DNA from: Fulvivirga sp.
GTDB taxonomy: Bacteria; Bacteroidota; Bacteroidia; Cytophagales; Cyclobacteriaceae
Reading direction: 5' to 3'
Assembly (NCBI GenBank): GCA_028280565.1
Contig: JANQLQ010000212.1
Span: forward strand, 1-63,078
DNA: 63,078 bases
The notes under the pieces are model-generated. The model ran no database searches. It was not told the DNA's origin and saw only the letters and a program-made list of their open reading frames with translations. A program made the position numbers and the translations under genes. Shown in pieces: positions 31,347 to 46,945 of this stretch (positions are counted from its first letter, which is position 1; each line of letters begins with the position of its first letter).

Positions 31347-31507
31347 GGATCTTCTTTACGATTTAATTATTTTTATATCGTACTCACGTTATTACCTAAG
31401 TTGGGGATAAGAAGGAATTAAAAGATCGCTATCTATCTTCCTTGTGAATAAGCACATTTTACAAAATGCTTGAAGTTGGGATGACATAACGGGAAAATTA
31501 ATCGTCA

Positions 31508-31648
31508 CAGCAAGGCTGGCGTAGCCGGTGGGCAGGTTACGAAGCTGCCCCCTTCTTGTGTGTGATCGAATGGACCTTGTTCTCGTTCCCCGACTGGGAG
31601 ATCGCTTCACGCATCACTAAGGCCAGCCCGCTGGGTTCGCGATGACGA
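31508..31648 (-). repeat. Interspersed repeat, copy A
   Basis: Shares with copy B (31670-31808) the stretches GTTACGAAG, GTGTGTGATCGAATGGACC and TTGTTCTCGTTCC, in the same order and spacing, then a GATCGCTTCACGC...GTTCGCGATGACG end that is the reverse complement form of the repeat at 16033. Copies A and B lie in direct tandem. Confidence 0.75.
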
Positions 31649-31669
31649 AAAAACAAAAGTAGGTCATAG

Positions 31670-31808
31670 GTGGGCCAGCGTGGCTAATGGGTAGGTTACG
31701 AAGCGGCCTCCCCCTCGTGTGTGATCGAATGGACCTTGTTCTCGTTCCACGACTGGGGGATCACTTCACGCCCAACGGAAGCCAACACACGAAGTTCGCA
31801 ATGACGGG
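31670..31808 (-). repeat. Interspersed repeat, copy B
   Basis: Tandem direct partner of copy A with scattered substitutions, ending in GATCACTTCACGC...GTTCGCAATGACG. The differences from copy A show that the duplication is not recent or that each was inserted separately. Confidence 0.75.
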
Positions 31809-31887
31809 AAAAATGTATTGTTTTGGTTTATTTGAGCATTCTTATCCCGAGTCCAGGTTCATTGCAAATGCTTCTTTCACTTACCCA

Positions 31888-31915
31888 AAAAGGGATGCCT
31901 TTCGACATCCCTTTT
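31888..31915 (-). terminator. Rho-independent terminator of the giant-protein operon
   Basis: AAAAGGGATG (31888-31897) and CATCCCTTTT (31906-31915) form a perfect 10-bp stem with an 8-nt loop, 27 nt past the stop codon of the giant gene. On the minus strand the stem runs into a T-rich end. It can work in both directions and separates the convergent GH2 and giant-protein transcripts. Confidence 0.8.
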
Positions 31916-31942
31916 CAAGTGAGTGACAGATGATACGACCAG

Positions 31943-34900
31943 TTACTCGATAATAAAACGTATCGAATTGTTAAACCCGGGGTGCTCTACATTGAGCATA
32001 TAAACGCCGGGAGACATAGACTTGTCCAGTTGGACTTGGTGGTATACTTTATCCATCGTCTCAATCTCTTCTTCCATAAGCACTACCCCTGACAGGTCCA
32101 TGATCATTACTTTTGAGACAGCGCCAGGGCTTGTATTAATGACGGCAAACCTAAGTATCCTGTCGTCATTCACTGGGTTAGGGTATACCTCCAGTAATTG
32201 CGGTATCTCTATGCCAGTATCCGTGATCATCACCACCTTGGACCGGGTATGGGTCCCTTGCTGGTCATAGAGCTTCAAGCGGTAGTAGATGGCCTCTTCG
32301 AAGTTCACCAGGTCCTCGTAGGTATAGCGCTCCACCGCCTGGGAAGTGACCGTGGCTATAGGAGTGAATTTCTGCCCATTAGATGAGCGCTCCAGCTCGT
32401 AATGGACAATATCCTCACTCACATTATTCCAGTCCAGTTGGATCGGGCCGCTAGCCAGCTGCTCACCTTCGAAATCAAGGGCCCGGATAGCCGCTTCGGT
32501 CCCATCCGCATTGAGATTGAGTACGGTGAAGAACTCCTCCACATCCTCAGCCAGCGCATTGCCGTTCAGATCACGAAGTTCGGCTACCTTCAGTTCCAGC
32601 TGTTCACCTGCGTATTGCGAGGTAAAGTGGTCATCAAAAAGGATTTCCAGTGTATTTCCATCAAGAAATGTGGTATACATAGCGGGATCCACCTCATAAG
32701 TCGACGCCATACGTGAAGCGCTTCCATCCCCCTCCATTACCTGGCCTACGGATACGGCTCCCGTATCCAGTGATCCCGTATCCATGTCCTCACTGAAGGA
32801 CAGCATCACCATAGTTCCCATATGGATAGTGCCATCCGAAGGCGACGAGGATTGTACCACCGGTGAAATCCTGTCTATCCTGCCCTCTGCCACGTCAGAG
32901 TACTTCGGAAATCCTTCTCCAAATACCTTCGCTCTTACCTCGAGGACGGTATCCTGGTAGGCTACAGGAGGTATCCAATTGATAGGGTATACAGGATAAT
33001 TGTTGGCTGTTGCTCCGCCGTTGTTCTCAAAATAAATGCGTAACTGGTCCCGCGTTACCGTCTCAATAGGATCCCAGGACTCCTTATCACCCGAGAATTG
33101 TAAAATCATACTATCCAGCGAATAATGTTGTTCGAACAAGTCGTATTCCGCTATTGTAAAGGTTACGGAAGGCTTTTCTACATTCACTACCCAATTCGTG
33201 CTGGCCTCCAGCAAACTGGCCGGGCTGGTAGATTTACCAAACTGTGCCACGGTAAATTCATGGTATAACGAGTCGGTCTTATTACCGGCTAAGTCACGTA
33301 CTTCTTTAATGCCCACTTTTAAAGTCCTACCCAACTTCTCATTGAATTGGCTTTCATCATAAAAAACGAGCAGTTGATCTCCCGCACAATGATAACGCAC
33401 AGGAACAAATGGTTCGGTAACCAAGCTTCCCGGCACGCTGATTTCGGAGAAGAAGTGTTCTTCGCTCACATAGCCGCAATCAACGGTCTCGTCAAAGCCC
33501 AATACCACTTCATCACCCGGATCATAAACGCCATCGGCCGGGGCAGGGATGCCTAACAGGGCAGGGGCCACCCGATCGATGGTAACAGAAGGCATGCTTT
33601 GCACATTTTGCAGGCCTGAATCCCCCGTCAACACCAACTGCACCTCGTACACGCCATCATCCAGCGCTATATCATTGGACAAAAACTGTCCTACATGCAA
33701 CCGGAGGGTATCCCTTGGCACCTGACTATTGTCTCCCAGTGCCTCATAGTTATTGGCAAGCTGTTCTTGTGTAAGTATGTACGCATCCGTCCAGTCTGTT
33801 GTATTCTCCCTGCGATACATTAAGCGAATATCCCGGATAGAGGCAGACTTTTCATACACATCATAGTTCAATACCTGGTACAGCAGTTCCGATGGTGATG
33901 ATGCATTGAAAACCGACGATGAAAGCGGCAACGCTTCAAAACCGGACGGCGTCTGCTTCTGATAATCCAACTGGAAGTCCCACACGTAGAATGAGTCTTT
34001 TGAAGGATTGTTGTTCAGATCGTAAATACCTGAAACCCGTACTTCCATGTTTTGACCATCATACGTAGTAATTACGGTTTCATCCAGCAGTATACTCACT
34101 GCGCTACCGTCACAGGTGATACTGTAGGGTACCTGCTCACCCTCTATTCGTACCTCTACCAATATATCGGATTCAGCCAGGAACTTGTCGCAGTCAATGG
34201 ACTCATCGAAAGCAATACTGATGTTATCTCCAAGTGAATACAATCCATCTACAGGCTCCGGAGGGCCGGCGAGGGTGGGCTGCCTGGTATCAATGACTCC
34301 GGCTACCTCGTTGGAGGTCCCGGTGGTTCCGTTGTCATGCACCACCACTGCACGGATGAGGTATTCACCATCAATAGCGCTGGCTTCTTCAGGATCCCAC
34401 AGGACCGGGAAAGTGGGGTCCTGGTATGTGTTGAGATTATCCTGGTAAAACTCCCACAGGAGATCTTTGCCCAGGGTAGAGTAACCGCCTTCACTGTCAC
34501 TCAAACGCGTCCAGTGTTGATCACTTCTGCGTTTATACTCCAGGTAGATTTCCTCAAAGGAGTGCATCTGCTGGCGTACATCATAGCCGGTCAGTTTCAG
34601 TGGCACTACATTTCTTCCCTCTTCGGTATTGACCAGCCATGTTCCGTTTTCAGTCGATAGCACGGCCGGGGAGATCGGCTTCTGGAAGTGGAACTCTAAT
34701 TTAAGGGTATCGTAGATCGCCTCATCTTCCCAATAGGTACCTTTCCCTCCATAGCAATTCGGTTTTACCACCAACTCAATATCGTCAAAGTTAAAGAACG
34801 GCAGACCACTCCGATCGGCTACCAGGTATGTATAGTAATTTCCATCAGCGGATACGGGAAAATCACCTTCTCCCGGGTTTGCAGGTTGAACCAACGCTAC

Positions 34901-37900
34901 TGACCCCCGGTAATTGTTGACTTTCACGTTTTCAATTTCCATGTTCAATCCCTTTTTATTCGTCCCCAAGGGCACGGTGACCTGCACCAAGCGGTGTTCG
35001 TTAAACAGGTTACCAGAACTAAACGCTATTGGAATAGCCAGCGCCTGGTCCGGGTGCAGGTCATAGTACTTGGTAGGCCACAGTTCCCCGGTCTCATCGG
35101 TGAGTTGGATACGTGGCATATCTCTTGGCACTGTACCCGGCTCATATGGGCAGGAGCTTCGTCCTCCCAGGATACTGAAGTACGGAGTAGTTTTAGTAGC
35201 GCCATCTGTCCACGAATGGAACGCATCTACACTGAAATGATCTCCATCATCATCATCTGCTAAAATGAAACCTGTTTTGAATTCAGTAGCATTCGACTCA
35301 CTGAATTCATAGGTTGACCTATGGAAGTATTTCGAAGTAGTTTTAACTTTAGACTTGAACTTACTGTTAAAGAACTCCATTTCGTTCGATACCCCAGCGC
35401 CTATCCCAGCCCAATGGAGTATTTGATTCTCAGTTTTATGCCCAATATCGACAACTAATTTTCCATCAAGGGAAAACTTGCGCTCGAAAACTTCTCCTTC
35501 ATAGGTTTCTTTCTCAATGGTGCGTGAAACACTTGCTCCCGCTCCAAAAGTAATATTCTCCAAGGGTTCAAACCCTTCAAACTCATCCAAGCGTTCAAGA
35601 AATACATCCTCTATATTTTCTGCCAATAGGCGATCTCTATTGGCCGCTTCATAAAACGCTACAATCTCTTTTGCAGCCAAATACTTCCTGTAGGCATTGT
35701 TATAGTTGTTCGCATCAAGGTCATTTTCTTCCTGCTCATCATTATTGTAACCTCGAATCTCATCATTCCAATATTTTACAATGTCAGGTAAGGGCACGCA
35801 CTCATCATTTTCCAGGACATACTCATTGCAGAATGACTTTACGTCCGCCACAAGATCATCAATATCACTCGAGATCTTTAACTTAATAAGTCTCTTACCC
35901 TCATATTCTTGCTTGTAATATTCAACGAACTCACACATCTCACAAGTAGGTGTAAACTTGGTATCCATCTGCTCAAGCAACTTCTCAAACATTTCTTTTC
36001 CAGCCCCTAAATCCGCTACAAACTGCTCCGGGTCAACGCCAGTACTATCTGAGAAAATGGTGCCTTCGGTAGGAACATACCCTCCATTTCCGTCGGGTTC
36101 AATGAGTGAATTGTAATAATTGATAGTATTCTTAATTTGGCTCCTGGTATATACCCAGGAAGACGTGATCTCATTGGGAATGACACTCATAACCTTCTCT
36201 TTGGTAATTTCGCAATCATTGATCAGGTCAAGATTTTCCACAATCCCATACGCCAATACTACACTTATCCCAACTACGATGTCTGCGTCAGGCCCGTCCA
36301 GGTAACCTTCCAGATTTTCACTGACGGTTGCCTTTTTCACAGTAGAAATCTGTTCCTTAAACTCTAATGAATAACTGTTTGAATACTGTCTTTCCGTGTG
36401 GCCTCCTATTTCTCCTGAAAGGTCGATTTCAAGCTCGTAACCCCCTAAACTTGTGCCTCCGCCTTTCGAAATATCAACACCTCCTCCATTATTGTGCCGT
36501 CGCTTAAATTGAAAATTAATGGATGACTTCTCCGATATAAAGGCTGTACTGTTATCACCGGGAGGATCACGTAACACATAGAGAGGAACCAGTTCCTGAT
36601 AGTTATCCCCATTCGACTCCGGTATAATAAATACATCTGAACCCGGGGCGTCTTGTGTCCCTAATACCAAAATCTCCATGGTCTCCATACCCTGGAAACT
36701 TCCATGATCATCATAATAATATAACTCCAGGAGTTGTGTATAAGGAGCATTCATATTTGGAGTGGTGGCCACAATATAAAGCTCGTCCCAACCTTCCTCA
36801 GGATCATAAGTAAGAGAATCCTTATTCTCAGGCTGGCCGTTGAACCATTCTCCACCGTTAAACTTAGGAATAATATAACCTGAGGTGACATCACATTCTT
36901 TTCCGTTTATGGTCTGTTGAGGTTTTACAGTAAAGGATAAGCTATTGTAAAAGCGTTCATTGCTATCGTCCGCTACCATAACCAGGTCAAAATCCCCACA
37001 ACTAAGTGATTTGTTACCTGGATTTTGAACTTCTACCAATATCTCTGAACGCTCGTTGTATCTCAAATAGTGAATTTCGTCCATGAGTGACCTCTTGTCA
37101 TTTTCATCAACATTAGGATCGACTGATTTTATAAAGTTTTCTACATTATTTGAAAGATAGAGATCGCGAGATCTAAAATAATCCAATAGCACTTCACTGA
37201 ATCGATCACTCTTATTGACGTCAATAACTTCTATATGATGATTGTACGGAGGGAGTAGCAATGAATCCAGGGACTGGTTTTGAGTCCAGACCTGCTCTTC
37301 CATTTGTTGATTATCGTCATAGATGCGTAGCAGAAATTCATAGTCCGTTAATACTTCACATATTCCCGGACCGGTTACTTCAAGATTAATCGGGAAGGCA
37401 TTGTTATCCAGTATTTCCAACTCGTAAAGCTCATTGCTCTGAAGTTCATCCAACAGCTCTACTTTGAGCTTTCTGAAATCGCCACCACGTTCATCCGGTA
37501 CCCAATCTGAGGTTTCTGATAACAGGTAGTCAAAATACACCGTGTCAATTTCGTCCTCTACCAATTCAGCACTTAATTCTTCAGTATTGTCTACCAATAT
37601 GTAAATGCTCTCGTAAAGCGATAAGTTGTAGGGGACGGATAGTGTAAACTGTCCATTTTTGTCGGTTAATGCATGACCATTACTTACATCATTAGTATCA
37701 TCAGAATCTTCACTTAGATATAGATGAACACGCACATTTTCATGACCGCATCCTGAAGAACAATTAGCATTCCTAATCGTCCCACTAATCGTTCGCTGAT
37801 GATCGTTTGTGAAAACCAAACTACTATTTTGTGGTAAGGTATGGCTTAACGTAGTTGTAAAACTACTAGGGTCATAGTGTTCCCTGTTTTCTAAGGGTTG

Positions 37901-40900
37901 CACAGTATATTCGATCCCACTTCCACTGTATGGTAACAGGTCGAACCTTACATTTCCTTCATTATCCGTAGCGTCAACTTTTTGATAGCTCAATCCATTG
38001 TAAGTAGCTGAAAGCCTGAATTTAGCACCTTGAATTGGTGAATTAAGCCTAGACAATGCCATTACACTGATCACTCCATCTCCCAACCTACTACCCCTAA
38101 CAGGAGACTTGTACTCTTCGCCATCCGCATATTCTGCCGACACTTCATACAAGTGCGATACACCTGGATCTGCATTTGCGTCAGTGAAACTGTAGACATC
38201 ACCCGACAATCGATGTATAACAAAACCATCCCGATAAACAATGTATCGAACAGGTAATGGATCGACGATATTTCCACCATCATCCATGGGGTAGTCCCAG
38301 TTAAGTATTACATTATTCGGTTGATTGCCAGTAGCCTCTACGTGTGAAGGATATTTGTCGGATGCCGTCAACTCAACAATAAATGGCAGGGTGTTAATTG
38401 CAGACAGAAGTTTATCTTCTCCCTTGCGTTGATAAGCCTGTATGCTGGCTCTGAATTCATTGGTACCTGACTGGTCCTCATTCATGAGTAATTCATAAAG
38501 CTGTTGACCTGGCGCCAAATCAAGCTTATCAAAATTAATCTGATGGATCTGGCCCAGTGAAGTATAGGTGTAGGTATAAGGAACAAACGAGTTACCTTCC
38601 CTCTTTTCTACGGTTAAAAATAACCCATCATATTTGAGATTTTCAGGATTGTCCAGCGCCCAATTCAGAGGCACACGCTTACTATCGATCGTAGGACTGT
38701 TCAGCAGTGTTGTAAATACTTCATTAGTTTTGAAAAACGGAGCATATAATTTATCATACGTGACCGACTGACTGACTTCTTTGGAGAGGTAGGTGTAATC
38801 TTCGCGAATACTCCTTGTTTTCAATATGAATTCATACGCTACTTCAGAAAAGCCTTCACTAAATATGTATTCATAATCATTTTGATCCGCGACAGATTCA
38901 ATATATTCATTCACTACTTCTTTTCCGGACTCCACTTCCTTGATCAATAACTCAAAACCATCGATGGCTGAAGCATAATACTCCCATGAAACCTTCAAAC
39001 TGTCATAGACCTGGTCATCCGGGTTGATCTCACCCTGGTAACCGGTAACTGCAAAGTCTACCGGTTGCTGTAATCGGGGATAATTGAATGCCAGCTCTGC
39101 CTTTTCTCCGAAGTGGAACTCTCCCTCCCGGTAATCGTATGATTGAATAGCGTACGGGGTATACGTTTCCGGCACACCTTGCTCGTCTATAAAGACCGAA
39201 TCCGGTGCATCAAGCGTCGCTATCTGCTTCGCATCCCTGAAGATCCGCACCCCTTTAATAGCCACTTCATCATCCGGGTATCGCCAGCTTAAGGTCACGC
39301 TATTGTCAACAATATCATTCCCATCCGCATCCTGTATAGGATCATCTTGTTCATCACGTATTATCGTCTCTTTCGCTGAAAAGTTGAGAACACTTCCGGG
39401 AGCAGGGTATTCCGCACTGACGGTAGCCGAGCTTTGCATAGACGGTATAACTTGTCCTTCCCGGACGATATAGCTGTAAATGATGTAAGGATAGATCTGA
39501 CCGGGGATACCTGTCACGTCGCGGAAATAGGTTGCATCTGCGGCTACTTCCCCGATGACTTCTTCGCCCCGCACAATAATGAACCCGTCTATGTTCCTCT
39601 TCCTATGCGCAAAGTGCAGCTCTACCCATCCATTTTTCTGATCGGCAAAGGCGGCTACATAATGTGGCGCATCAAAAACTTCCCATTGGATGAATGACTG
39701 GCCTAGGGCTCCTGTTAAATGATCCTCTTCCACAGCATCACGCAGGTAGGTCTCTACCACGTAATCCGCACTGGAGGGATTATTAGAAACCAGCGAATCT
39801 ACATAAAGTAACATTTGTCCGTTTTTGACATTCGATTTTACCAATTCCGCTTGCAGGTTATTGTAAACTTTTGACCCTGAATAACGTTTTCCGTTGACCA
39901 TCCATCTTACTTTATTGGTCAGCGTGACCGGGTCACTTTCAGTAGCGAGGCCGACAATTTGTGAAGCAGACGCCACATCGGATTCCCAAAATTCATTGTT
40001 GCCTGACAGCTCAATATCGTAGGTATGTACCTGCCGGGAGGGATCGATGTTAAGGTTTGCCAAATGAGAGATCTCGGTAGTTCCAGGCTTTACATAATCC
40101 ACCCCAATAGATGCTCCGAAGAGCTCCAGGTCGTTGAGGGTATAATGGCCCGCAGCATCCGAGAGGGTCCATTGATCGCCAATACCTACCCAAACGTGAG
40201 GCTGTGGTGAGCCGTTTGCATTGAATACATAGCCACCCACCTGGTGGTACTGCCTCGCCACACCATGGTCAGCGACCCAATCACTGTAAAGCGTCTCCGT
40301 GACCGTGCCTTCTTCGTCTATTTTGTAAAATTCGGCCATGATCCGGTAGATCATCGTATCTCCTGCAATGGAAGTCCCTGCATGTGTGGTATCGACCAGG
40401 GAACGCCGGTTACCCGGTAAGGTAAATCGTTCCACCGGGTAGTTCGGGTTATTTCCGTTCCAGTCCTCCGGGGTCCAGCCTTCTTTCCACCGGGTTTTTT
40501 CTACGTTGAACGTCACATCCGTGTAGTCCGGGTAGGTCCAATGGAGAAATACCTGGTTACGCGCGTCTTTTGAGGCGTATAGCACAGGGACCTGTAATTC
40601 GTTCGTCGCAGTGGGATCAGGTGTAAGCTGATCCGGCAGTTGACTGTCCTTCGCAGCACGCGTGGCCTTAAATGATTCACTTTTTGCCGTATTTACATAA
40701 ACTTCCCGCTTAAACGGCTGAAACTCCAGACTTGTACCTGGCCAAGCTGCATCTTCCGGGTGGTAATACAGGATTTCATTGCCATTGACAATCAATTCCT
40801 TGGAAAGCCTCACCTCCTGTATGGCTTGATTGGTAGCCTCATCGATCACCCGGACGGAGATCCCTTGCCAGCTACGGTCTTGAATCCGATCTTCCTCCAG

Positions 40901-43900
40901 TTTGATCTTGTAACGATTGTGGTTTTGAGCATTTATCGTATGGATTATCTGACCGGGAGATGGATAGGTATACTCCAGCGTATCCACCGGAAGCAGCTCC
41001 TTGGAGCGCGTCATCATCTTGAGGACATAGTGGTAGGTAGTATCCGGATGCCCACTGATATCAAGCATCTGATACAAGGAATTGGCGGGTACCTGGGATA
41101 ACTTGCCTAACGTATACAATGTGTTATCCACTATGTTGCCTGCGCTTAGCTGCATCCTTTCTACCACAAAATGATCGATCGTATCCAGAGCAGGGTAACT
41201 CCAATCCAATGAAAGCAACCGTTCCCCGGTGACCATAGCCGAAAGAGTAACGTCTGCATGGACCTGGTTTATAACAGTAGTATCATACTCCTGCTTCACC
41301 AGGCTGATTCCATCTGGTTGAAAGTAGTAAGCAACGAACATGACCTCCTGATTTCCGCTATCATAGAGACGGAGGCGATTTTCACTTCCCGGTGGAATGA
41401 CATGGATCAGTTGCAATTGCCGTTGCTCATTCTTTTGGTAAACATTCATATATATCTCATGAGTATCATTAACTGTTGCCCATTCATAGGTCACAGCATT
41501 GTTTTCAACGACCGGTTTCCGGAAGGTGACAAAATCGGTATCACTGTCTATGGGCTGATAAGGTGTGACCGAGGTGTTGACCAATGCCTGGCGTATAGAT
41601 GGCCTGCCATGGCTCAATTCAAAATCGTAGTCCAACGTATCACCCGCTATGGTAGCCTTAAAGTTGGATTTTTTGCCGTAAAACAGCTCGCTCACTATGA
41701 AGGCCCCATTAGCACTGGTGAGCGTCTCCCTGTTCACTTCTACACCAATCACCTTAAAAGCCTGGTTTGGCAACACATAATCGTCCTCCGTCAGCAAGTA
41801 CCCTTCAAACATTCCATTGGGTGCTATGGAAGAGTTTGTACGCTGCTCAAAAGCCGGCAGGCCGTCTTTTAATGCGACGATCTTGTATTCATACGGTTGA
41901 CCATGCAAAACCAATGAATCTTCGACAAAGTCTTTGCCGGAGATGTTGCTTAGGATCTCATTGTCTCGCTCCAATAATAACTGATCGTATTGCCAGCTTT
42001 CCGGTTGCCATGAGACCAGGATCCGGTCGGTCCCAGAGGCGTGCAGCTGAATGTCCGGTACTTTTTCCGGGCCTGTAGTGAGCGCATTGGCCGTATCACG
42101 CTTAGTGATAATAGTATTATTATAGCGAGGTATTACCGTATATTGATACTGGTTACCTCCTCTCAAGGTATTTGGATCATCGTAAGCATAGGCATCGACT
42201 ACTTCTATTGGTGAAGGAGTATCTGAAGACCTGTCCACCGGATATGTACCCAAAAGGATCTCATCCATGGCTTCGTTGTCCTCCAGCCTGGCCCGTCGCA
42301 CTTCGTATTGATCTGCATTAAGTGTCCCGGTAGGCGTTTCCGGGTCTATTGTGATCTTTACCTGGAAAGGGCCGGACTGCTCCGGATCAAGGGTTACGAT
42401 GGGTGGCTCCGGCTGCGGAAACTGCGCAGTATCGCTTTCCGCCGAAAGCTTGCGCCCCGTACCTTCTTCAAAAACCTTTAGCAGGTAGTCTTTTGCAGGG
42501 TTGCTACCCGCAGTGGTGGGATGTTCTAGCCATACCTCAGGATCATACGTTTCAATACCACCATTGAAGTTACTGGCTTCAATGCGTAACGGATAGGTGT
42601 CCGCATCAGTGGAACGAATGTTCAGTTTTGCTTCTTTGATATCGTTCTTTGAACTGGTGGTACTATTCTCATCTTCGAAGCGCCATTGACCGTACAAATC
42701 GGGGAACTGCTGTGCTTCGCCAATAAAAATATCCATGTAATCAGCATCGATCTGCTCATCAGAACGGACTTTGGACCACAACCTGACCAACCCAATTTGC
42801 CCGTTAAATTTTCCAATGCTCATATTTGTCTCAAGCGGCCCGGCATAAAAATCATTGTCTTGAGCGACCTTATTTCCATTAACGTAAAAAGACAATTGAC
42901 CGCCTTGTGATGAAAAGGCCAGGTGGCTCCATTGATCGTTAACAGCAACGGGAGAGGTAAGTGATCTTTGTCCGTTTTCAGCCATGAGGTGACCTGAGGC
43001 ATCCAGCCCGACGGACAACCCTCCACCGGACTTAAAAAGGGACATTTCACGGTCCGCCTCTCTTTCCGGATTAAGCCAGAGCTCTAACGTCCAATCGGCC
43101 ATATTGCCCGTGAGCTCAGGGGTAAGATAGACTCCTTGAGTACCGTCGCCGGATAGGGTTACTGCGCGATCAAACAAAAGTTCTTTCTGCGTGATATGGG
43201 ATAGGGAAAGTAGTTCTTCATGCATGATCCGGCCACTTTCCTTGTCTTGAATGATCACATACAAAGCCTCGTTGACCTGTTGCAGAAAGGTGTAGTTATC
43301 TATTTCGAAACTGAACCGGACGCGGGCCTCCGTCAATGCATTCGCGGTGAAATTCATGTTCAGCGTATTCCCTGTCACACCTACTGCCGGGGAGAGAAAT
43401 CTATTCTCCTTACTTACTCCGTAAGCCATGATGTAGTAGGTGAAACTGCCGTTGAAGGGCGTTTCGTCTACATATTGTGTTACTTGCCTGCCTTCCAGCA
43501 CCTGGTACGGAGTAGAAAAACCCTGGTCTTCTCTAAACAAGAGGTAACCCTCCGCATTATCCACACTTTGCCATGAGACCGTAATGCTGCTAAGACTGGC
43601 TTGTGAATGAATTCCATCCTCTCTCCGTGTGGCAGAAACACTCTGCGGGTTAATGCTATGGGCGTCATCGTCCAGGAAACCTCCCAAAACCAATTCGGGT
43701 GCGGATATTTTGCCGGTAAAAGCGGTTTTGAATGCCTGAGAGAAAAGATAGAACTTAGTTTCTCCATCGCTACCCTGGCTTCTTGTGTCAAGGTAGGCCA
43801 AATTTAACTGTTCCTGTGAATCACTTCGGATATGTACAGAATCTTTTTGACTAGTGTCGTTGACCAAATAACTCGTGTTGGAGCCCCCTACAATAAATAT

Positions 43901-44053
43901 CGAATCTCCCAGGTCTATTACGTGCCCTGGTTGATTCAGCGGGACCTGGTCCCCGGTCAGCGGGGGGCTGCTTACATTAGCTCCTTGAGCGTAGGTGAAT
44001 AGGGGCATCAAGGCATAGAGTCCCCCTATAAGCAATAATTTTAATGCTTTCAT
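31943..44053 (-). CDS. Giant modular surface protein with T9SS sorting domain
   Basis: A 4036-residue secreted protein. Signal peptide MKALKLLLIGGLYALMPLFT ends at YAQ (about 23). Residues about 145-230 resemble a fibronectin III domain; about 295-460 form a LamG/concanavalin-like domain (DWTLELWLNP...WSHLAFSSQGG...LYGQWRF). Many fibronectin-like and carboxypeptidase-regulatory-like units follow. Residues about 2510-2970 are a distinct non-repeat region ending in DDDDGDHFSVDAF and GGRSSCPYEPGT. Near the end are at least three SbsA/Big_5-like units (DGLYSLGD, DGVYDPGD, DGTIHMGT) and a type A T9SS C-terminal domain (about 3955-4036, VYPNPVNDD...). It should be exported by the T9SS and tethered to or released from the cell. 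Last gene of an operon with two collar/fibre-type proteins. A role in adhesion or surface structure is inference. Confidence 0.9.
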   Translation of the reverse strand: MKALKLLLIGGLYALMPLFTYAQGANVSSPPLTGDQVPLNQPGHVIDLGDSIFIVGGSNTSYLVNDTSQKDSVHIRSDSQEQLNLAYLDTRSQGSDGETKFYLFSQAFKTAFTGKISAPELVLGGFLDDDAHSINPQSVSATRREDGIHSQASLSSITVSWQSVDNAEGYLLFREDQGFSTPYQVLEGRQVTQYVDETPFNGSFTYYIMAYGVSKENRFLSPAVGVTGNTLNMNFTANALTEARVRFSFEIDNYTFLQQVNEALYVIIQDKESGRIMHEELLSLSHITQKELLFDRAVTLSGDGTQGVYLTPELTGNMADWTLELWLNPEREADREMSLFKSGGGLSVGLDASGHLMAENGQRSLTSPVAVNDQWSHLAFSSQGGQLSFYVNGNKVAQDNDFYAGPLETNMSIGKFNGQIGLVRLWSKVRSDEQIDADYMDIFIGEAQQFPDLYGQWRFEDENSTTSSKNDIKEAKLNIRSTDADTYPLRIEASNFNGGIETYDPEVWLEHPTTAGSNPAKDYLLKVFEEGTGRKLSAESDTAQFPQPEPPIVTLDPEQSGPFQVKITIDPETPTGTLNADQYEVRRARLEDNEAMDEILLGTYPVDRSSDTPSPIEVVDAYAYDDPNTLRGGNQYQYTVIPRYNNTIITKRDTANALTTGPEKVPDIQLHASGTDRILVSWQPESWQYDQLLLERDNEILSNISGKDFVEDSLVLHGQPYEYKIVALKDGLPAFEQRTNSSIAPNGMFEGYLLTEDDYVLPNQAFKVIGVEVNRETLTSANGAFIVSELFYGKKSNFKATIAGDTLDYDFELSHGRPSIRQALVNTSVTPYQPIDSDTDFVTFRKPVVENNAVTYEWATVNDTHEIYMNVYQKNEQRQLQLIHVIPPGSENRLRLYDSGNQEVMFVAYYFQPDGISLVKQEYDTTVINQVHADVTLSAMVTGERLLSLDWSYPALDTIDHFVVERMQLSAGNIVDNTLYTLGKLSQVPANSLYQMLDISGHPDTTYHYVLKMMTRSKELLPVDTLEYTYPSPGQIIHTINAQNHNRYKIKLEEDRIQDRSWQGISVRVIDEATNQAIQEVRLSKELIVNGNEILYYHPEDAAWPGTSLEFQPFKREVYVNTAKSESFKATRAAKDSQLPDQLTPDPTATNELQVPVLYASKDARNQVFLHWTYPDYTDVTFNVEKTRWKEGWTPEDWNGNNPNYPVERFTLPGNRRSLVDTTHAGTSIAGDTMIYRIMAEFYKIDEEGTVTETLYSDWVADHGVARQYHQVGGYVFNANGSPQPHVWVGIGDQWTLSDAAGHYTLNDLELFGASIGVDYVKPGTTEISHLANLNIDPSRQVHTYDIELSGNNEFWESDVASASQIVGLATESDPVTLTNKVRWMVNGKRYSGSKVYNNLQAELVKSNVKNGQMLLYVDSLVSNNPSSADYVVETYLRDAVEEDHLTGALGQSFIQWEVFDAPHYVAAFADQKNGWVELHFAHRKRNIDGFIIVRGEEVIGEVAADATYFRDVTGIPGQIYPYIIYSYIVREGQVIPSMQSSATVSAEYPAPGSVLNFSAKETIIRDEQDDPIQDADGNDIVDNSVTLSWRYPDDEVAIKGVRIFRDAKQIATLDAPDSVFIDEQGVPETYTPYAIQSYDYREGEFHFGEKAELAFNYPRLQQPVDFAVTGYQGEINPDDQVYDSLKVSWEYYASAIDGFELLIKEVESGKEVVNEYIESVADQNDYEYIFSEGFSEVAYEFILKTRSIREDYTYLSKEVSQSVTYDKLYAPFFKTNEVFTTLLNSPTIDSKRVPLNWALDNPENLKYDGLFLTVEKREGNSFVPYTYTYTSLGQIHQINFDKLDLAPGQQLYELLMNEDQSGTNEFRASIQAYQRKGEDKLLSAINTLPFIVELTASDKYPSHVEATGNQPNNVILNWDYPMDDGGNIVDPLPVRYIVYRDGFVIHRLSGDVYSFTDANADPGVSHLYEVSAEYADGEEYKSPVRGSRLGDGVISVMALSRLNSPIQGAKFRLSATYNGLSYQKVDATDNEGNVRFDLLPYSGSGIEYTVQPLENREHYDPSSFTTTLSHTLPQNSSLVFTNDHQRTISGTIRNANCSSGCGHENVRVHLYLSEDSDDTNDVSNGHALTDKNGQFTLSVPYNLSLYESIYILVDNTEELSAELVEDEIDTVYFDYLLSETSDWVPDERGGDFRKLKVELLDELQSNELYELEILDNNAFPINLEVTGPGICEVLTDYEFLLRIYDDNQQMEEQVWTQNQSLDSLLLPPYNHHIEVIDVNKSDRFSEVLLDYFRSRDLYLSNNVENFIKSVDPNVDENDKRSLMDEIHYLRYNERSEILVEVQNPGNKSLSCGDFDLVMVADDSNERFYNSLSFTVKPQQTINGKECDVTSGYIIPKFNGGEWFNGQPENKDSLTYDPEEGWDELYIVATTPNMNAPYTQLLELYYYDDHGSFQGMETMEILVLGTQDAPGSDVFIIPESNGDNYQELVPLYVLRDPPGDNSTAFISEKSSINFQFKRRHNNGGGVDISKGGGTSLGGYELEIDLSGEIGGHTERQYSNSYSLEFKEQISTVKKATVSENLEGYLDGPDADIVVGISVVLAYGIVENLDLINDCEITKEKVMSVIPNEITSSWVYTRSQIKNTINYYNSLIEPDGNGGYVPTEGTIFSDSTGVDPEQFVADLGAGKEMFEKLLEQMDTKFTPTCEMCEFVEYYKQEYEGKRLIKLKISSDIDDLVADVKSFCNEYVLENDECVPLPDIVKYWNDEIRGYNNDEQEENDLDANNYNNAYRKYLAAKEIVAFYEAANRDRLLAENIEDVFLERLDEFEGFEPLENITFGAGASVSRTIEKETYEGEVFERKFSLDGKLVVDIGHKTENQILHWAGIGAGVSNEMEFFNSKFKSKVKTTSKYFHRSTYEFSESNATEFKTGFILADDDDGDHFSVDAFHSWTDGATKTTPYFSILGGRSSCPYEPGTVPRDMPRIQLTDETGELWPTKYYDLHPDQALAIPIAFSSGNLFNEHRLVQVTVPLGTNKKGLNMEIENVKVNNYRGSVALVQPANPGEGDFPVSADGNYYTYLVADRSGLPFFNFDDIELVVKPNCYGGKGTYWEDEAIYDTLKLEFHFQKPISPAVLSTENGTWLVNTEEGRNVVPLKLTGYDVRQQMHSFEEIYLEYKRRSDQHWTRLSDSEGGYSTLGKDLLWEFYQDNLNTYQDPTFPVLWDPEEASAIDGEYLIRAVVVHDNGTTGTSNEVAGVIDTRQPTLAGPPEPVDGLYSLGDNISIAFDESIDCDKFLAESDILVEVRIEGEQVPYSITCDGSAVSILLDETVITTYDGQNMEVRVSGIYDLNNNPSKDSFYVWDFQLDYQKQTPSGFEALPLSSSVFNASSPSELLYQVLNYDVYEKSASIRDIRLMYRRENTTDWTDAYILTQEQLANNYEALGDNSQVPRDTLRLHVGQFLSNDIALDDGVYEVQLVLTGDSGLQNVQSMPSVTIDRVAPALLGIPAPADGVYDPGDEVVLGFDETVDCGYVSEEHFFSEISVPGSLVTEPFVPVRYHCAGDQLLVFYDESQFNEKLGRTLKVGIKEVRDLAGNKTDSLYHEFTVAQFGKSTSPASLLEASTNWVVNVEKPSVTFTIAEYDLFEQHYSLDSMILQFSGDKESWDPIETVTRDQLRIYFENNGGATANNYPVYPINWIPPVAYQDTVLEVRAKVFGEGFPKYSDVAEGRIDRISPVVQSSSPSDGTIHMGTMVMLSFSEDMDTGSLDTGAVSVGQVMEGDGSASRMASTYEVDPAMYTTFLDGNTLEILFDDHFTSQYAGEQLELKVAELRDLNGNALAEDVEEFFTVLNLNADGTEAAIRALDFEGEQLASGPIQLDWNNVSEDIVHYELERSSNGQKFTPIATVTSQAVERYTYEDLVNFEEAIYYRLKLYDQQGTHTRSKVVMITDTGIEIPQLLEVYPNPVNDDRILRFAVINTSPGAVSKVMIMDLSGVVLMEEEIETMDKVYHQVQLDKSMSPGVYMLNVEHPGFNNSIRFIIE

Positions 44054-44110
44054 TGTACTATCTTCCTGTTAAGGTGAATGATATAAAGCCGTTGAGTACC
44101 GGGAGTAACT

Positions 44111-45454
44111 CTATCGTGTAGCCCCTGTTTTAATTTTGTTAAGTTCCTGTTTGAGTGAGCTGTTCTCCTTTTTCAGATCGATCACATAAAGAGTCAACTC
44201 TTCGATCTTCTGAAGCAGGATTGCATTGATCTCGGACTGGTTATAGCCTTCTTCGCTGACTTGCTTCGCCGAAGGCACACCGGGTAGGTGCTTGTTGGCT
44301 ATGATGTATGCCTCTACCTCTGGGAGCTGCCTTAGTTCATACCCTTCCTCAAATACAAAATCAGACCAGGTAGCTGTCGGATCCATGTGTAGCTCTTTTA
44401 CCTGCGCAGTTCCATAAATTCTTAAGTTAGCGGCTTCATTCGATGCACCAACAGTCAAGCCCTGGTCAAACTTCCCGTTACCGGCCACGTGTAGCTTTTC
44501 CTGCGGATTTTCAACACCAATACCCAGGTTGCTCTTGAAGTAATTATCATTGTTTCCTGCAAACCAGGCTGAATTATCAATACTTCCCGTCCAACCATCG
44601 TGCTCTACAAACAATCTTATCGCTTGGCCTGAACTTCTTATTTGAAAAATTGGATCTCCACTACCGGGGTTTGCCTCTACCCTGTATGCCAATCCCGAGG
44701 TAGAACGAAGGTCTCCTTTAATGGAGTAACCACTATAATCGGAGGGTGATTCCATCAAGACCAGGCGTTCCCCCGAGGCATTACCGCTTACCACTTCGTG
44801 ACTGGTGGCTTTGATGTAATAAGCAACAGCTATGTTCATTGGTCTTGTTTCAGTGCCACCCTTATGGTCAATTGTGTGCTTATGGCTTCCTGCATACTCC
44901 GTATGCTTATTGTGCGAAACAGCATCATTCACACCACTACCAGAGGTGCCTGCATTCGATCCCCCTTCCCTGGCAAGACCTTTGATCTCATGCCTGTGAT
45001 TACCGGCATTTTGCATCCCGTGATTATGTGATTTAAATTGATCCCCCTGGCTGGTTCCAATCCCTTTATTTTCATTTTTCCTGTCAGCGTCCACGTTACT
45101 GGACCCATTGAAGCCCCGTAGAAATTGTCCGCGGAGGTCGGGAAGGTTGAAGTTATTGCCTGATTCACCATAGGTATCTTTTATTGCCTCGTATAATTCC
45201 GGGTAGTCCGTCTTACTCAGTGACCTACCATCACAAAAAAGGTACCCGATAGGTCTGCTGCTTCCCGCTATGGCTATGATTGTTCCAACAGGGTTGGTTT
45301 GATTAACTTGGTTAAAACCCGATACTTCGGGATCATCATCATAGGTAGGAACTGACTGTGCAAAGGCTGAAAACGCTAAAAAATTGGCCATAAAGACCAG
45401 TCCAATTTTTATGGACAAAAATTCTTTGGCCAAGTGTGTGTAACTATTTTTCAT
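44111..45454 (-). CDS. Secreted phage tail-collar domain protein with coiled-coil C-terminus
   Basis: A 447-residue protein with a signal peptide ending near residue 33 (AFAQ). Residues about 55-225 match the phage tail-collar fold: IGYLFCDGRSLSKTDYPELY, FNLPDLRGQFLRGF, HNHG, HKHTIDH and RPMNIAVAYYIKA, with His-rich loops. A single beta unit LGIGVENPQEKLHVAG follows. The last 100 residues are the Bacteroidota fibre tail (HLPGVPSAKQVSEEGYNQSE) and a Leu/Lys/Glu coiled coil. It is probably an extracellular trimer. It lies 57 nt upstream of the giant gene and is surely co-transcribed. No phage genes are near, so it is a host surface protein, not a prophage remnant. Confidence 0.85.
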   Translation of the reverse strand: MKNSYTHLAKEFLSIKIGLVFMANFLAFSAFAQSVPTYDDDPEVSGFNQVNQTNPVGTIIAIAGSSRPIGYLFCDGRSLSKTDYPELYEAIKDTYGESGNNFNLPDLRGQFLRGFNGSSNVDADRKNENKGIGTSQGDQFKSHNHGMQNAGNHRHEIKGLAREGGSNAGTSGSGVNDAVSHNKHTEYAGSHKHTIDHKGGTETRPMNIAVAYYIKATSHEVVSGNASGERLVLMESPSDYSGYSIKGDLRSTSGLAYRVEANPGSGDPIFQIRSSGQAIRLFVEHDGWTGSIDNSAWFAGNNDNYFKSNLGIGVENPQEKLHVAGNGKFDQGLTVGASNEAANLRIYGTAQVKELHMDPTATWSDFVFEEGYELRQLPEVEAYIIANKHLPGVPSAKQVSEEGYNQSEINAILLQKIEELTLYVIDLKKENSSLKQELNKIKTGATR

Positions 45455-45541
45455 CGGGATGAATAGGTTAAGGTGGTTTCTAGAAGATTTTTGTAATCTT
45501 TGAATTGTTTTATAGGAATATGCCGTTAAGCAATCATCACA

Positions 45542-46945
45542 TTAGTTGTCAACTGATTGAGTACAGCGGTGCGTTTCGGCAAGTCGCTGGTTCTCCTGCT
45601 TCAGTTCAATCAGGTACAGTGTCAACTCCTCGATCTTTTGCAGCAATAGTGCATTGACCTCTGACTGGTTGTACCCTTCTTCGCTTACTTGTTTTGCGGA
45701 GGGTATACCGGGCAAGTGCTTGTTTTCTTGTATGAAGGTATTTACTTCTTCAAGTGTAGGCAGATCATAATCTTCATCAAATACAAAATCGGACCAGGTA
45801 GCCGTAGGGTCCATGTGCAATTCTTTGACCTCTGCTGTGCCGTAAAGCCGCAGGTTTTTATTGCTGGATGATGACCCAACGGAAAGGTCACCGGTAAAAT
45901 TTCCATTGCCTGAAACATTGATATTCGTAGCGGATAATTTCCCAATGGAAAGGTCTCCTGAGAATATACCATTACCAGCGACATGTAATTTTTCTGCTGG
46001 AGAGGAAACACCTACCCCGATACGTCCATCATTGGCAATAAACATTTTTCCATTTTTATCACCATCCATTGCTGTGCTAAACACCAGCTTTGAGCCATCT
46101 GCACCCTGTTTTTCAGCGCTAATACCGGCTAAGGATATATCTTGATTAGTTCCACTCTTATCGTAATTAAAGAATGAAATTTGGCCAAAAGTCATACCAT
46201 CATTGTTTCGCGCACCGTACAAAAGCAAATTTGCACCTGTATTTGATGTGGCACCATCTCTACCGTTAATGGACAGGTTTCCGCGCACATCTAGTTTTTC
46301 CGACGGAGTACTGGTACCAATGCCAAGGTCCCCGGCATCGGTCAAGATCATATTCAGATCATTCCCGGTATTAAACTTAAAACTTCCGTCACCGGAGTCA
46401 TCATGATCTGCCTTGAAGCCCATGGGACCGCTGGTTTTAAATGTCCGGTTGAATCCCATGAAAATATCTCCTTCAACATGCAGCTTTTCAAATGGATTAC
46501 TGGTACCTATCCCAACTTTACCGTCGCTTTTTACTACCAACCCACTTTCTTTTGAAAAACCTTTGGAAATGAACATTACCCAAGCTGTATATTTGGGACT
46601 GCTACTATGTGTTCTCATATCGGCTTTAATATGCCATTCACCACCTTGATCTATCATCCTTACATATAGTAACTTCCCTTCGGTACCACCTTCATAGATA
46701 TCTCCCGTTCCTAAATCAAAGCTAACTACTGCCGCATCCCAGGTATTGACATCATAGCCTGTTTCAACTAATTGTTCGTGAGGAATGTTTTTAAAACTTT
46801 TAAATTCAATAGACCTGTCTTGACTAAAGGATCGTACTAATCCTAGGCAGCATAATACGAACAAAAGCAATACTGACCTGTTAATGGAACCGAATAAGTC
46901 TTTCCTGGCTGGTGGATCTGTTTTGGAATTGTAAACTTTTTTCAT
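45542..46945 (-). CDS. Secreted fibre protein with GIGT beta repeats and coiled-coil C-terminus
   Basis: A 467-residue protein with an N-terminal hydrophobic segment (SVLLLFVLCCLGLVRSFSQ) acting as a signal. After a beta-rich head come three copies of a tail-fibre repeat: VGIGTSNPFEKLHVEGD, LGIGTSTPSEKLDVRGN and IGVGVSSPAEKLHVAGN. The last 100 residues closely resemble those of the collar protein downstream (KELHMDPTATWSDFVF, HLPGIPSAKQVSEEGYNQSE) and finish in a coiled coil. First gene of the operon. A trimeric extracellular fibre is likely from the repeat style; binding target unknown. Confidence 0.82.
   Translation of the reverse strand: MKKVYNSKTDPPARKDLFGSINRSVLLLFVLCCLGLVRSFSQDRSIEFKSFKNIPHEQLVETGYDVNTWDAAVVSFDLGTGDIYEGGTEGKLLYVRMIDQGGEWHIKADMRTHSSSPKYTAWVMFISKGFSKESGLVVKSDGKVGIGTSNPFEKLHVEGDIFMGFNRTFKTSGPMGFKADHDDSGDGSFKFNTGNDLNMILTDAGDLGIGTSTPSEKLDVRGNLSINGRDGATSNTGANLLLYGARNNDGMTFGQISFFNYDKSGTNQDISLAGISAEKQGADGSKLVFSTAMDGDKNGKMFIANDGRIGVGVSSPAEKLHVAGNGIFSGDLSIGKLSATNINVSGNGNFTGDLSVGSSSSNKNLRLYGTAEVKELHMDPTATWSDFVFDEDYDLPTLEEVNTFIQENKHLPGIPSAKQVSEEGYNQSEVNALLLQKIEELTLYLIELKQENQRLAETHRCTQSVDN

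What the first reader, a model, noticed from the sequence alone, without database searches (positions are those of the whole stretch)
31943..46945. Possible new surface-fibre system: two collar/fibre proteins plus a 4036-residue T9SS substrate in one operon
Three minus-strand genes with short gaps (87 and 57 nt) encode two secreted tail-fibre-type proteins and one giant T9SS cargo. Tail-collar and GIGT-repeat folds usually form trimers at the tip of phage tails; here they have signal peptides and no other phage gene is near. A joint surface structure, such as an adhesive fibre with a collar-type tip, would explain the grouping. The structure and function are inference.
Basis: partly seen in the sequence, partly recalled or inferred. 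Interest (0 to 1): 0.8.

Follow-up and report, generated by a model that had tools for sequence, protein, structure and literature searches.

The report
Phage-fibre plus giant surface-protein operon
A gene for a giant secreted surface protein sits right behind two genes for phage-tail-fibre-like proteins, and the same kind of pairing recurs in many distantly related bacteria of this phylum, so the parts probably work together on the cell surface, although no one has tested this.

Summary
Three minus-strand genes, gaps 87 and 57 nt, encode a GIGT-repeat fibre-type protein (A, 467 aa), a tail-collar plus GIGT protein (B, 447 aa) and a 4036-aa giant (C) with a T9SS type-A sorting domain. I defined a conserved core in the giant (motif VLRDPPGxxS). 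Of 172 distinct ORFs with this core, 143 have at least 400 nt held upstream; in 47 of those 143 the next gene upstream (same strand, gap -4 to 95 nt) is phage-fibre-type. Pfam finds Collar in 23 of these 47, S74 in 9, Gp10_C in 4; the rest rest on my own profiles. All 7 rows of the window's clade have it. Close downstream neighbours are fibre-type in 6 of 88. The exact A-B-C trio is local; the conserved unit is fibre gene(s), then giant. Best reading: a T9SS-displayed giant with exchangeable trimeric fibre-type heads. Assembly, surface location of the fibre proteins and adhesion are inferred. None of the 47 fibre proteins has a Pfam T9SS signal, so a periplasmic helper role remains a real rival. 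Ten literature searches listed no paper on the pairing.

The parts
45542..46945 (-). Gene A: 467-aa GIGT-repeat fibre-type protein; hydrophobic N-terminus, three GIGT-like repeats, C-terminal 'ct' module
   Evidence: (PHROG tail fibre 1.6e-15)
45575..45838 (-). ct module of A (DFVFxxxYxLxxLxEVxxFIxENKHLPGxPSAxxVxxxGxxxxEMNxLLLxKIEELTLYxIEL; coiled-coil-like end); no Pfam or NCBIfam model matched it above its cut-off
44111..45454 (-). Gene B: 447-aa tail-collar + GIGT + ct fibre-type protein
   Evidence: phrog_523 tail collar fibre 8.4e-36, aa 49-218
45119..45286 (-). Pfam Collar (PF07484) domain of B
44147..44410 (-). ct module of B
31943..44053 (-). Gene C: 4036-aa giant (LamG, fn3-type repeats, core, repeats that align with several places of its relatives, T9SS type-A sorting domain)
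42749..43144 (-). Laminin_G_3 (ConA-like lectin fold) domain of C, aa 304-435
34685..36643 (-). Conserved core of C, aa 2471-3123 (VLRDPPGxxS ... GGRSSCPYExGT); used to find relatives; long beta-hairpins in the model
31949..32188 (-). T9SS type-A C-terminal sorting domain (TIGR04183) of C
44054..44110 (-). 57-nt gap B-C, no terminator-like site listed
45455..45541 (-). 87-nt gap A-B, no terminator-like site listed
31880..31923 (-). Terminator-like hairpin behind the giant

Best explanation
The genes form a conserved cassette, 'fibre gene(s), then giant', for a cell-surface structure. The giant is exported by Sec, passed through the type IX secretion system and attached to the surface by its type-A sorting domain; its LamG, fn3-type and other repeats make a long stalk with a lectin-like part. 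The upstream proteins are Sec-exported, probably trimeric, phage-fibre-type proteins whose exchangeable C-terminal ends (collar, S74, ct, others) act as folding module and/or receptor-binding head. They probably assemble on the giant and ride with it to the surface, where the complex binds glycans or other cells. Shown: gene content, conserved adjacency, T9SS sorting domain, T9SS translocon gene in the genome. Inferred: signal peptides, trimers, docking, surface location of the fibre proteins, adhesion.
For: Adjacency: 47 of 143 assessable distinct core ORFs have a fibre-type gene directly upstream; 47 of 82 close same-strand upstream neighbours against 6 of 88 downstream (Fisher p 3e-13, no correction for relatedness). 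On a tree of 96 cores the label needs 5 changes (shuffled mean 26.5, 0 of 500 shuffles as low); all 7 rows of the window's clade carry the label, one of them (L091, a split giant) labelled by hand. In 17 genomes chosen because they hold cassettes, 31 Collar genes were found, 19 of them in cassettes: 17 directly before a giant and 2 in tandem behind those (compared with the fetched regions). Fibre and core distances correlate over 24 of the 25 collar+nt pairs (Spearman 0.68, 0 of 2000 permutations). The C-terminal ends are exchanged while the place in the operon stays. TIGR04183 in 35 of 36 cassette giants whose C-terminus was held. SprA in the window's genome, 2514 bits. Hydrophobic N-terminus in 44 of 47 fibre proteins, interior control 6 of 47. 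In the same genome ct genes also directly precede an fn3 protein (C259) and an fn3 + T9SS-tailed protein (C101).
Against: Of 143 assessable core ORFs, 57 have no same-strand upstream gene within 200 nt and 39 have one not called fibre-type (7 of these 39 rows are split giants or shifted cases with a fibre-type gene nearby). So the giant does not always need a linked fibre gene. None of the 47 fibre proteins matched a Pfam T9SS signal, nor A and B an NCBIfam one, so surface location is not supported directly. No collar, ct, S74 or nt module is fused to any of 183 core ORFs. At four other places of the same genome (C40, C124, C155, C263) the gene behind the ct gene is not a T9SS-tailed or fn3 protein as far as tested. 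The model of B was poor (pLDDT 45) and no multimer could be predicted. Related clades inflate the counts.
Confidence: 0.5

Rival explanations
1. The fibre-type proteins are dedicated periplasmic chaperones or assembly scaffolds for the giant and are not part of the final surface structure.
For: No Pfam T9SS signal in any of 47 fibre proteins; gene order puts them immediately before the giant; S74 is by name a chaperone of endosialidase.
Against: Collar modules, mostly with 2-3 HxH motifs here, are, from recalled phage work, receptor-binding tips rather than general chaperones; the variety of C-terminal ends (collar, S74, ct, Gp10_C) fits swapped heads better than one chaperone function; giants of other clades do without a linked one.
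Confidence: 0.2
2. The proteins are co-regulated surface adhesins that share an operon but do not touch each other.
For: Same data as for the operon; ct fibre genes also stand alone or before other proteins in the same genome.
Against: Strong, position-specific adjacency and co-inheritance, although co-regulation alone could also keep it.
Confidence: 0.2
3. A and B are leftovers of a prophage next to an unrelated giant gene.
For: Collar and tail-fibre PHROG matches; tail fibres of two Thermus phages have GIGT repeats with an S74-type end.
Against: Pairing found in several clades of the phylum; no phage Pfam family in 15 other window genes tested; no phage record covers 80% of B (0 of 1398 matching records) or of A (0 of 8).
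Confidence: 0.02
4. The cassette is an antagonistic or predatory device: fibre heads recognise another cell and the giant's core inserts amphipathic hairpins into its membrane.
For: The core model (pLDDT 72.9, pTM 0.71) holds long beta-hairpins; hairpins 1 and 3 alternate in hydrophobicity (mean z 1.65 and 2.01; z over 1.64 in 17 and 19 of 35 sequences).
Against: Hairpin 2 does not alternate (2 of 35) and the C-terminal part of the core does so weakly too (9 of 35, mean z 0.99), so the signal is partly what any beta structure gives. Foldseek gives no convincing match (4 of 687 at E up to 0.001; TM-scores at most 0.28 in the 50 rows shown). Much of the hairpins has low confidence. I did not search for toxin or immunity genes.
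Confidence: 0.08

Closest known systems
Phage tail-collar fibre proteins (PF07484; PHROG tail collar fibre)
   Same: B has the Collar domain above the curated cut-off and an ETRPxNxAVxYxIK stretch as at the end of other collar proteins
   Different: Signal-peptide-like N-terminus by eye, GIGT and ct modules added, no virion genes among those tested nearby, placed before a T9SS giant
Phage tail fibres with GIGT repeats and an S74 end (Thermus phage phiFa phiFa_68, annotated distal tail fiber; YS40_Isch, annotated hypothetical)
   Same: GIGTSSPSYKLDVNG-type repeats
   Different: They end in an S74-type module and the ct profile did not match them; ct against S74 profiles gave 24% probability
T9SS giant adhesins such as SprB of Flavobacterium johnsoniae
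   Same: Very large T9SS cargo; SprB is called a large cell-surface adhesin in PMC11205867 (passages)
   Different: C matched the type-A domain only; partner genes are phage-fibre-type; no relation to gliding tested
Ixotrophy grappling hooks (heptamer of a T9SS substrate; Lien et al. 2024, seen only as cited in PMC11205867)
   Same: T9SS substrate on the surface used to catch prey; possible analogy only
   Different: No sequence relative of C in the PDB copy at E up to 1; the core profile gave two weak matches to unrelated entries, E 0.036 and 0.86; no fibre-type partner known to me
Tailocins, extracellular contractile injection systems, T6SS
   Same: Reuse of phage tail parts by bacteria
   Different: No sheath, tube or baseplate family among the 15 other window genes tested; the partner is a T9SS cargo

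Membership tests
T9SS type-A cargo | C-terminal sorting domain TIGR04183 above cut-off | tested here: met
   C: 31.6 bits, cut-off 23; at E up to 0.001 in 35 of 36 cassette giants with a held C-terminus
T9SS type-A cargo | T9SS translocon in the same genome | tested here: met
   SprA TIGR04189, 2514 bits, C15 of G000
T9SS type-A cargo | Sec signal peptide | tested here: inconclusive
   Hydrophobic N-terminus ending in AQ by eye; no predictor available
T9SS type-A cargo | Secretion and surface attachment | not testable with these tools
   needs experiment
Phage tail-collar protein | Collar domain PF07484 | tested here: met
   B 68.6 bits, cut-off 24; A has none
Phage tail-collar protein | Encoded among virion genes | tested here: not met
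   15 other window genes without a phage Pfam family
S74 (endosialidase chaperone) fibre | Peptidase_S74 PF13884 at the C-terminus | tested here: not met
   A and B no match; ct against S74 profiles 24%. Met in 9 of 47 cassette fibres elsewhere
SprB-type gliding adhesin | Type-B sorting domain (TIGR04131; assignment to SprB recalled) | tested here: not met
   only TIGR04183 matched C in NCBIfam at E up to 0.1
Ixotrophy grappling hook | Sequence or structural relation to the heptameric hook protein | tested here: inconclusive
   no PDB sequence relative; whether that hook protein is in the PDB copy was not checked
Contractile tail-like device (tailocin, eCIS, T6SS) | Sheath, tube and baseplate genes | tested here: not met
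   none among 15 other window genes tested; elsewhere in the genome not searched

The most novel reading that the evidence does not exclude
A hitherto undescribed class of bacterial surface device in the Bacteroidota and related phyla: a T9SS-displayed giant protein carrying exchangeable trimeric phage-type receptor-binding heads, which travel to the surface without their own T9SS signal, and whose conserved core can open amphipathic beta-hairpins to engage or pierce a target membrane.
Probability: 0.1. Interest if true: 0.92.

Novelty: new variant of a known kind. Interest (0 to 1): 0.62.

Why it matters
It would mean that phage tail-fibre heads have been taken over as the recognition part of T9SS surface proteins, outside any tail or injection device, in several lineages. 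It would also mean that proteins without a T9SS signal may reach the surface by partnering with a giant cargo. Both points can be tested: the cassette occurs in named organisms such as Flammeovirga aprica, Polaribacter filamentus, Leeuwenhoekiella nanhaiensis, Phaeodactylibacter xiamenensis and Flavobacterium sp. RSP15. The core and the ct module have no match above cut-off in Pfam or NCBIfam, and the fibre N-terminal domain (nt) none that I could see in Pfam (NCBIfam not run on it).

Tried and rejected
Prophage remnant: rejected, see rivals. Chance neighbourhood: rejected. Conserved three-gene order A-B-C: rejected; a protein with both collar and ct was found only in the window (1 of 47 upstream fibres), and none of the other 14 genomes of the genus has a match to B at E 1e-30. 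Homology of ct and S74: not shown (24%). Identification of the core by fold: Foldseek against the PDB gave no usable match; the VIA library was not available. Structure of B: poor model, not searched. Promoters: no TTG-N17-23-TAnnTTTG site (recalled Bacteroidota consensus) in the upstream region or the two gaps; sigma-70-type hits as in shuffles, 27 against 28.3. Fusion of fibre and giant: none in 183 core ORFs. Literature: ten searches listed no paper that I could recognise as describing the pairing; I saw listings, and passages of three papers. The library lacks most subscription papers.
Full report
Observation. C is a 4036-aa protein with LamG, fn3 and a T9SS type-A sorting domain; B has a Pfam Collar domain; A has GIGT-like repeats and matches to phage tail-fibre families. 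A and B share a C-terminal module, here called ct, that no Pfam or NCBIfam model matched above its cut-off. Fifteen other window genes were tested in Pfam. On the high-coordinate side they include a histidine kinase, a response regulator and SusC/SusD-like genes; on the low-coordinate side sulfatase, GH2, GH3 and a TonB-receptor gene. None is a phage gene. A stable hairpin follows the giant.

The genome. The window is contig C191 of a 9.05-Mb draft genome. A contig of a same-genus genome (G007, 172914 bases) has the length of a Fulvivirga marina contig in another collection, and its giant is also 3333 aa, so the genus is inferred to be Fulvivirga (Cytophagales). Outside A and B the ct module matches at 11 further places on 7 contigs of this genome, and Collar at one other place. 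The giant has a paralogue of 5764 aa on C167 and a relative of 5653 aa in one other genome of the genus. Both have a ct-type fibre gene directly upstream, gaps 35 and 42 nt. Of 15 genomes of the genus, the window's own included, 5 have any match to the C-terminal 3000 aa of the giant at 1e-10, so the cassette is patchy. Behind the other ct genes of this genome stand an fn3 protein (C259), after five tandem ct genes an fn3 + T9SS protein (C101), an LRR protein (C124), a NAGPA-domain protein (C155), and no same-strand partner at C40 and C263.

A conserved core. The giants are colinear over long stretches but mostly only 25-33% identical. A core of about 650 aa (window aa 2471-3123) with the motif VLRDPPGxxS runs through them (the exact motif was missing in a number of rows). 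With it I searched 291 genomes of the order (31 with a match; 22 of 115 genera), 395 of the phylum (12; 11 of 171 genera) and 395 of the class (29; 23 of 197 genera); the sets overlap. A scan of named genomes gave 298 relatives, of which the best 80 were returned. I fetched 38, 17 and 33 regions round the best places of the genome searches; a few weak or contig-end places were left out.

Upstream neighbours. Gene tables were made with an ORF caller of my own (longest non-overlapping ORFs) and profiles for the core, collar, ct, S74, a fibre N-terminal domain (nt, 'QGxxRDxxGxAxxD') and a downstream domain. After removing 11 duplicate rows of 183, 172 core ORFs remain; 29 are cut off upstream. 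Of the other 143, 47 have a fibre-type gene directly upstream on the same strand, 39 another same-strand gene within 200 nt, 57 none. Seven of the 39 rows are split or shifted cases: L091, L178 and L194 (two rows) with a ct gene behind the broken giant, L180 with a GIGT-type protein by eye, L245 with a cut GIGT protein by eye, L182 with a ct gene one place further up. So 47 is a lower bound. By my profiles 26 of the 47 carry a collar, 9 S74-like ends, 6 ct (one of them the window's B, counted under collar too), and 7 the nt domain with or without GIGT repeats. Pfam alone finds Collar in 23, S74 in 9 and Gp10_C in 4 of the 47. The gaps are -4 to 95 nt. Close same-strand neighbours are fibre-type in 47 of 82 upstream and 6 of 88 downstream; 30 of 1148 other genes in the neighbourhoods are fibre-type, many of them tandem copies beside the counted ones or duplicate loci. 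Tandem fibre genes, as in the window, recur (for example L093, L107, L129, L215, L252). In the first set alone (genome searches and window) the count is 32 of 94.

History. On the tree of 96 cores of the first set the fibre label is clustered (5 changes; at least 3 forced by well-supported branches; shuffled mean 26.5, 0 of 500 as low; quick method with SH-aLRT support only, and a long-branch warning for L089 and two more with L092). The window sits with C167, the relative in G010 and four others, all 7 with a fibre gene (L091, split, labelled by hand), inside a set of 15 of which 8 have none. Other clades, about 3100-3400 aa, have no linked fibre gene but often a downstream gene sharing a domain with the giant's C-terminal part. 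In the relative UBA9432 the locus L178 keeps the window's order: divergent kinase gene (52% identity over 160 aa), one ct fibre gene (35% over 307 aligned columns to A; 55% over 118 aa of the ct end to B), then a giant in pieces with runs of N. B's collar part is 38% identical to the collar gene before the giant of L081. The simplest reading is that a collar was gained in front of an existing GIGT-ct fibre in the window's lineage (inference).

Mechanism. T9SS cargo status of the giants is well supported: 35 of 36 held C-termini match TIGR04183 and SprA is present in the window's genome. The fibre proteins have hydrophobic N-termini (44 of 47, interior control 6 of 47) but no T9SS signal in Pfam (0 of 47). 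They should reach the periplasm; going further would need a partner. The fixed position with exchanged ends is what modular fibre heads would show. Phage collar and gp37-type tips bind receptors and hold metal through HxH motifs (recalled); collar-type cassette fibres mostly have 2-3 HxH motifs. I therefore prefer a joint surface structure at 0.5, with a periplasmic helper and mere co-regulation at 0.2 each.

The core. The model of the core is fair (pLDDT 72.9, pTM 0.71) and shows long hairpins round a helical part, with much of the hairpins at low confidence. Hairpins 1 and 3 are amphipathic in many homologues (17 and 19 of 35 with z over 1.64), hairpin 2 in 2 of 35, the C-terminal part in 9 of 35, the helical part in 0 of 34. 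Foldseek gives no convincing relative. This leaves room for a membrane-active or oligomeric barrel role, at low probability.

Known or new. None of ten searches of an open-access library listed a paper that I could recognise as being about collar or fibre proteins paired with T9SS cargo. I read passages of PMC11205867, PMC7468147 (a phage that carries T9SS-tailed enzymes) and PMC13288928; those passages do not describe it. The parts are of known kinds; the conserved combination appears undescribed as far as these searches reach.

Noticed in passing
L081, L085, L043, L044, L233 and others, gene directly downstream of the giant: A further gene often follows the giants, starting PDWxVNPxxYxYSM...RGVA (51 of 88 close downstream neighbours). 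The same ~110-aa domain occurs, mostly twice, inside 128 of 183 core ORFs (E up to 0.01), near the C-terminus in those looked at, but not in the window's giant. L044's gene has Por_Secre_tail, L085's cadherin repeats plus CHU_C, L233's no Pfam match.
   Followed up: partly
L182:1665-2573: A 302-aa 'mini giant' resembling the N-terminus of the giants, with a T9SS-like C-terminal end by eye, stands between the ct fibre gene and the 4027-aa giant; no Pfam match.
   Followed up: partly
L037:7795-12787 (C101 of the same genome): Five ct-type fibre genes in tandem, then a 403-aa fn3 protein with a T9SS type-A domain.
   Followed up: partly
L041:7261-17718 and L040:909-9436 (same genome): ct-type fibre genes of 773 and 918 aa stand before a 2685-aa LRR protein and near a 1440-aa Rhs-core protein.
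   Followed up: partly
window 31504-31812: Two copies of a 150-nt direct repeat (77% identity, spacing 159) in the non-coding stretch behind the giant.
   Followed up: no
L199, L245, L252, L257, L216, L222, L243: Records titled KSB1, Neomarinimicrobiota, Verrucomicrobia and Thermoanaerobaculia also hold the core, two with S74- or GIGT-type genes upstream (L252; L245 by eye); misbinning of these MAG contigs was not excluded.
   Followed up: partly
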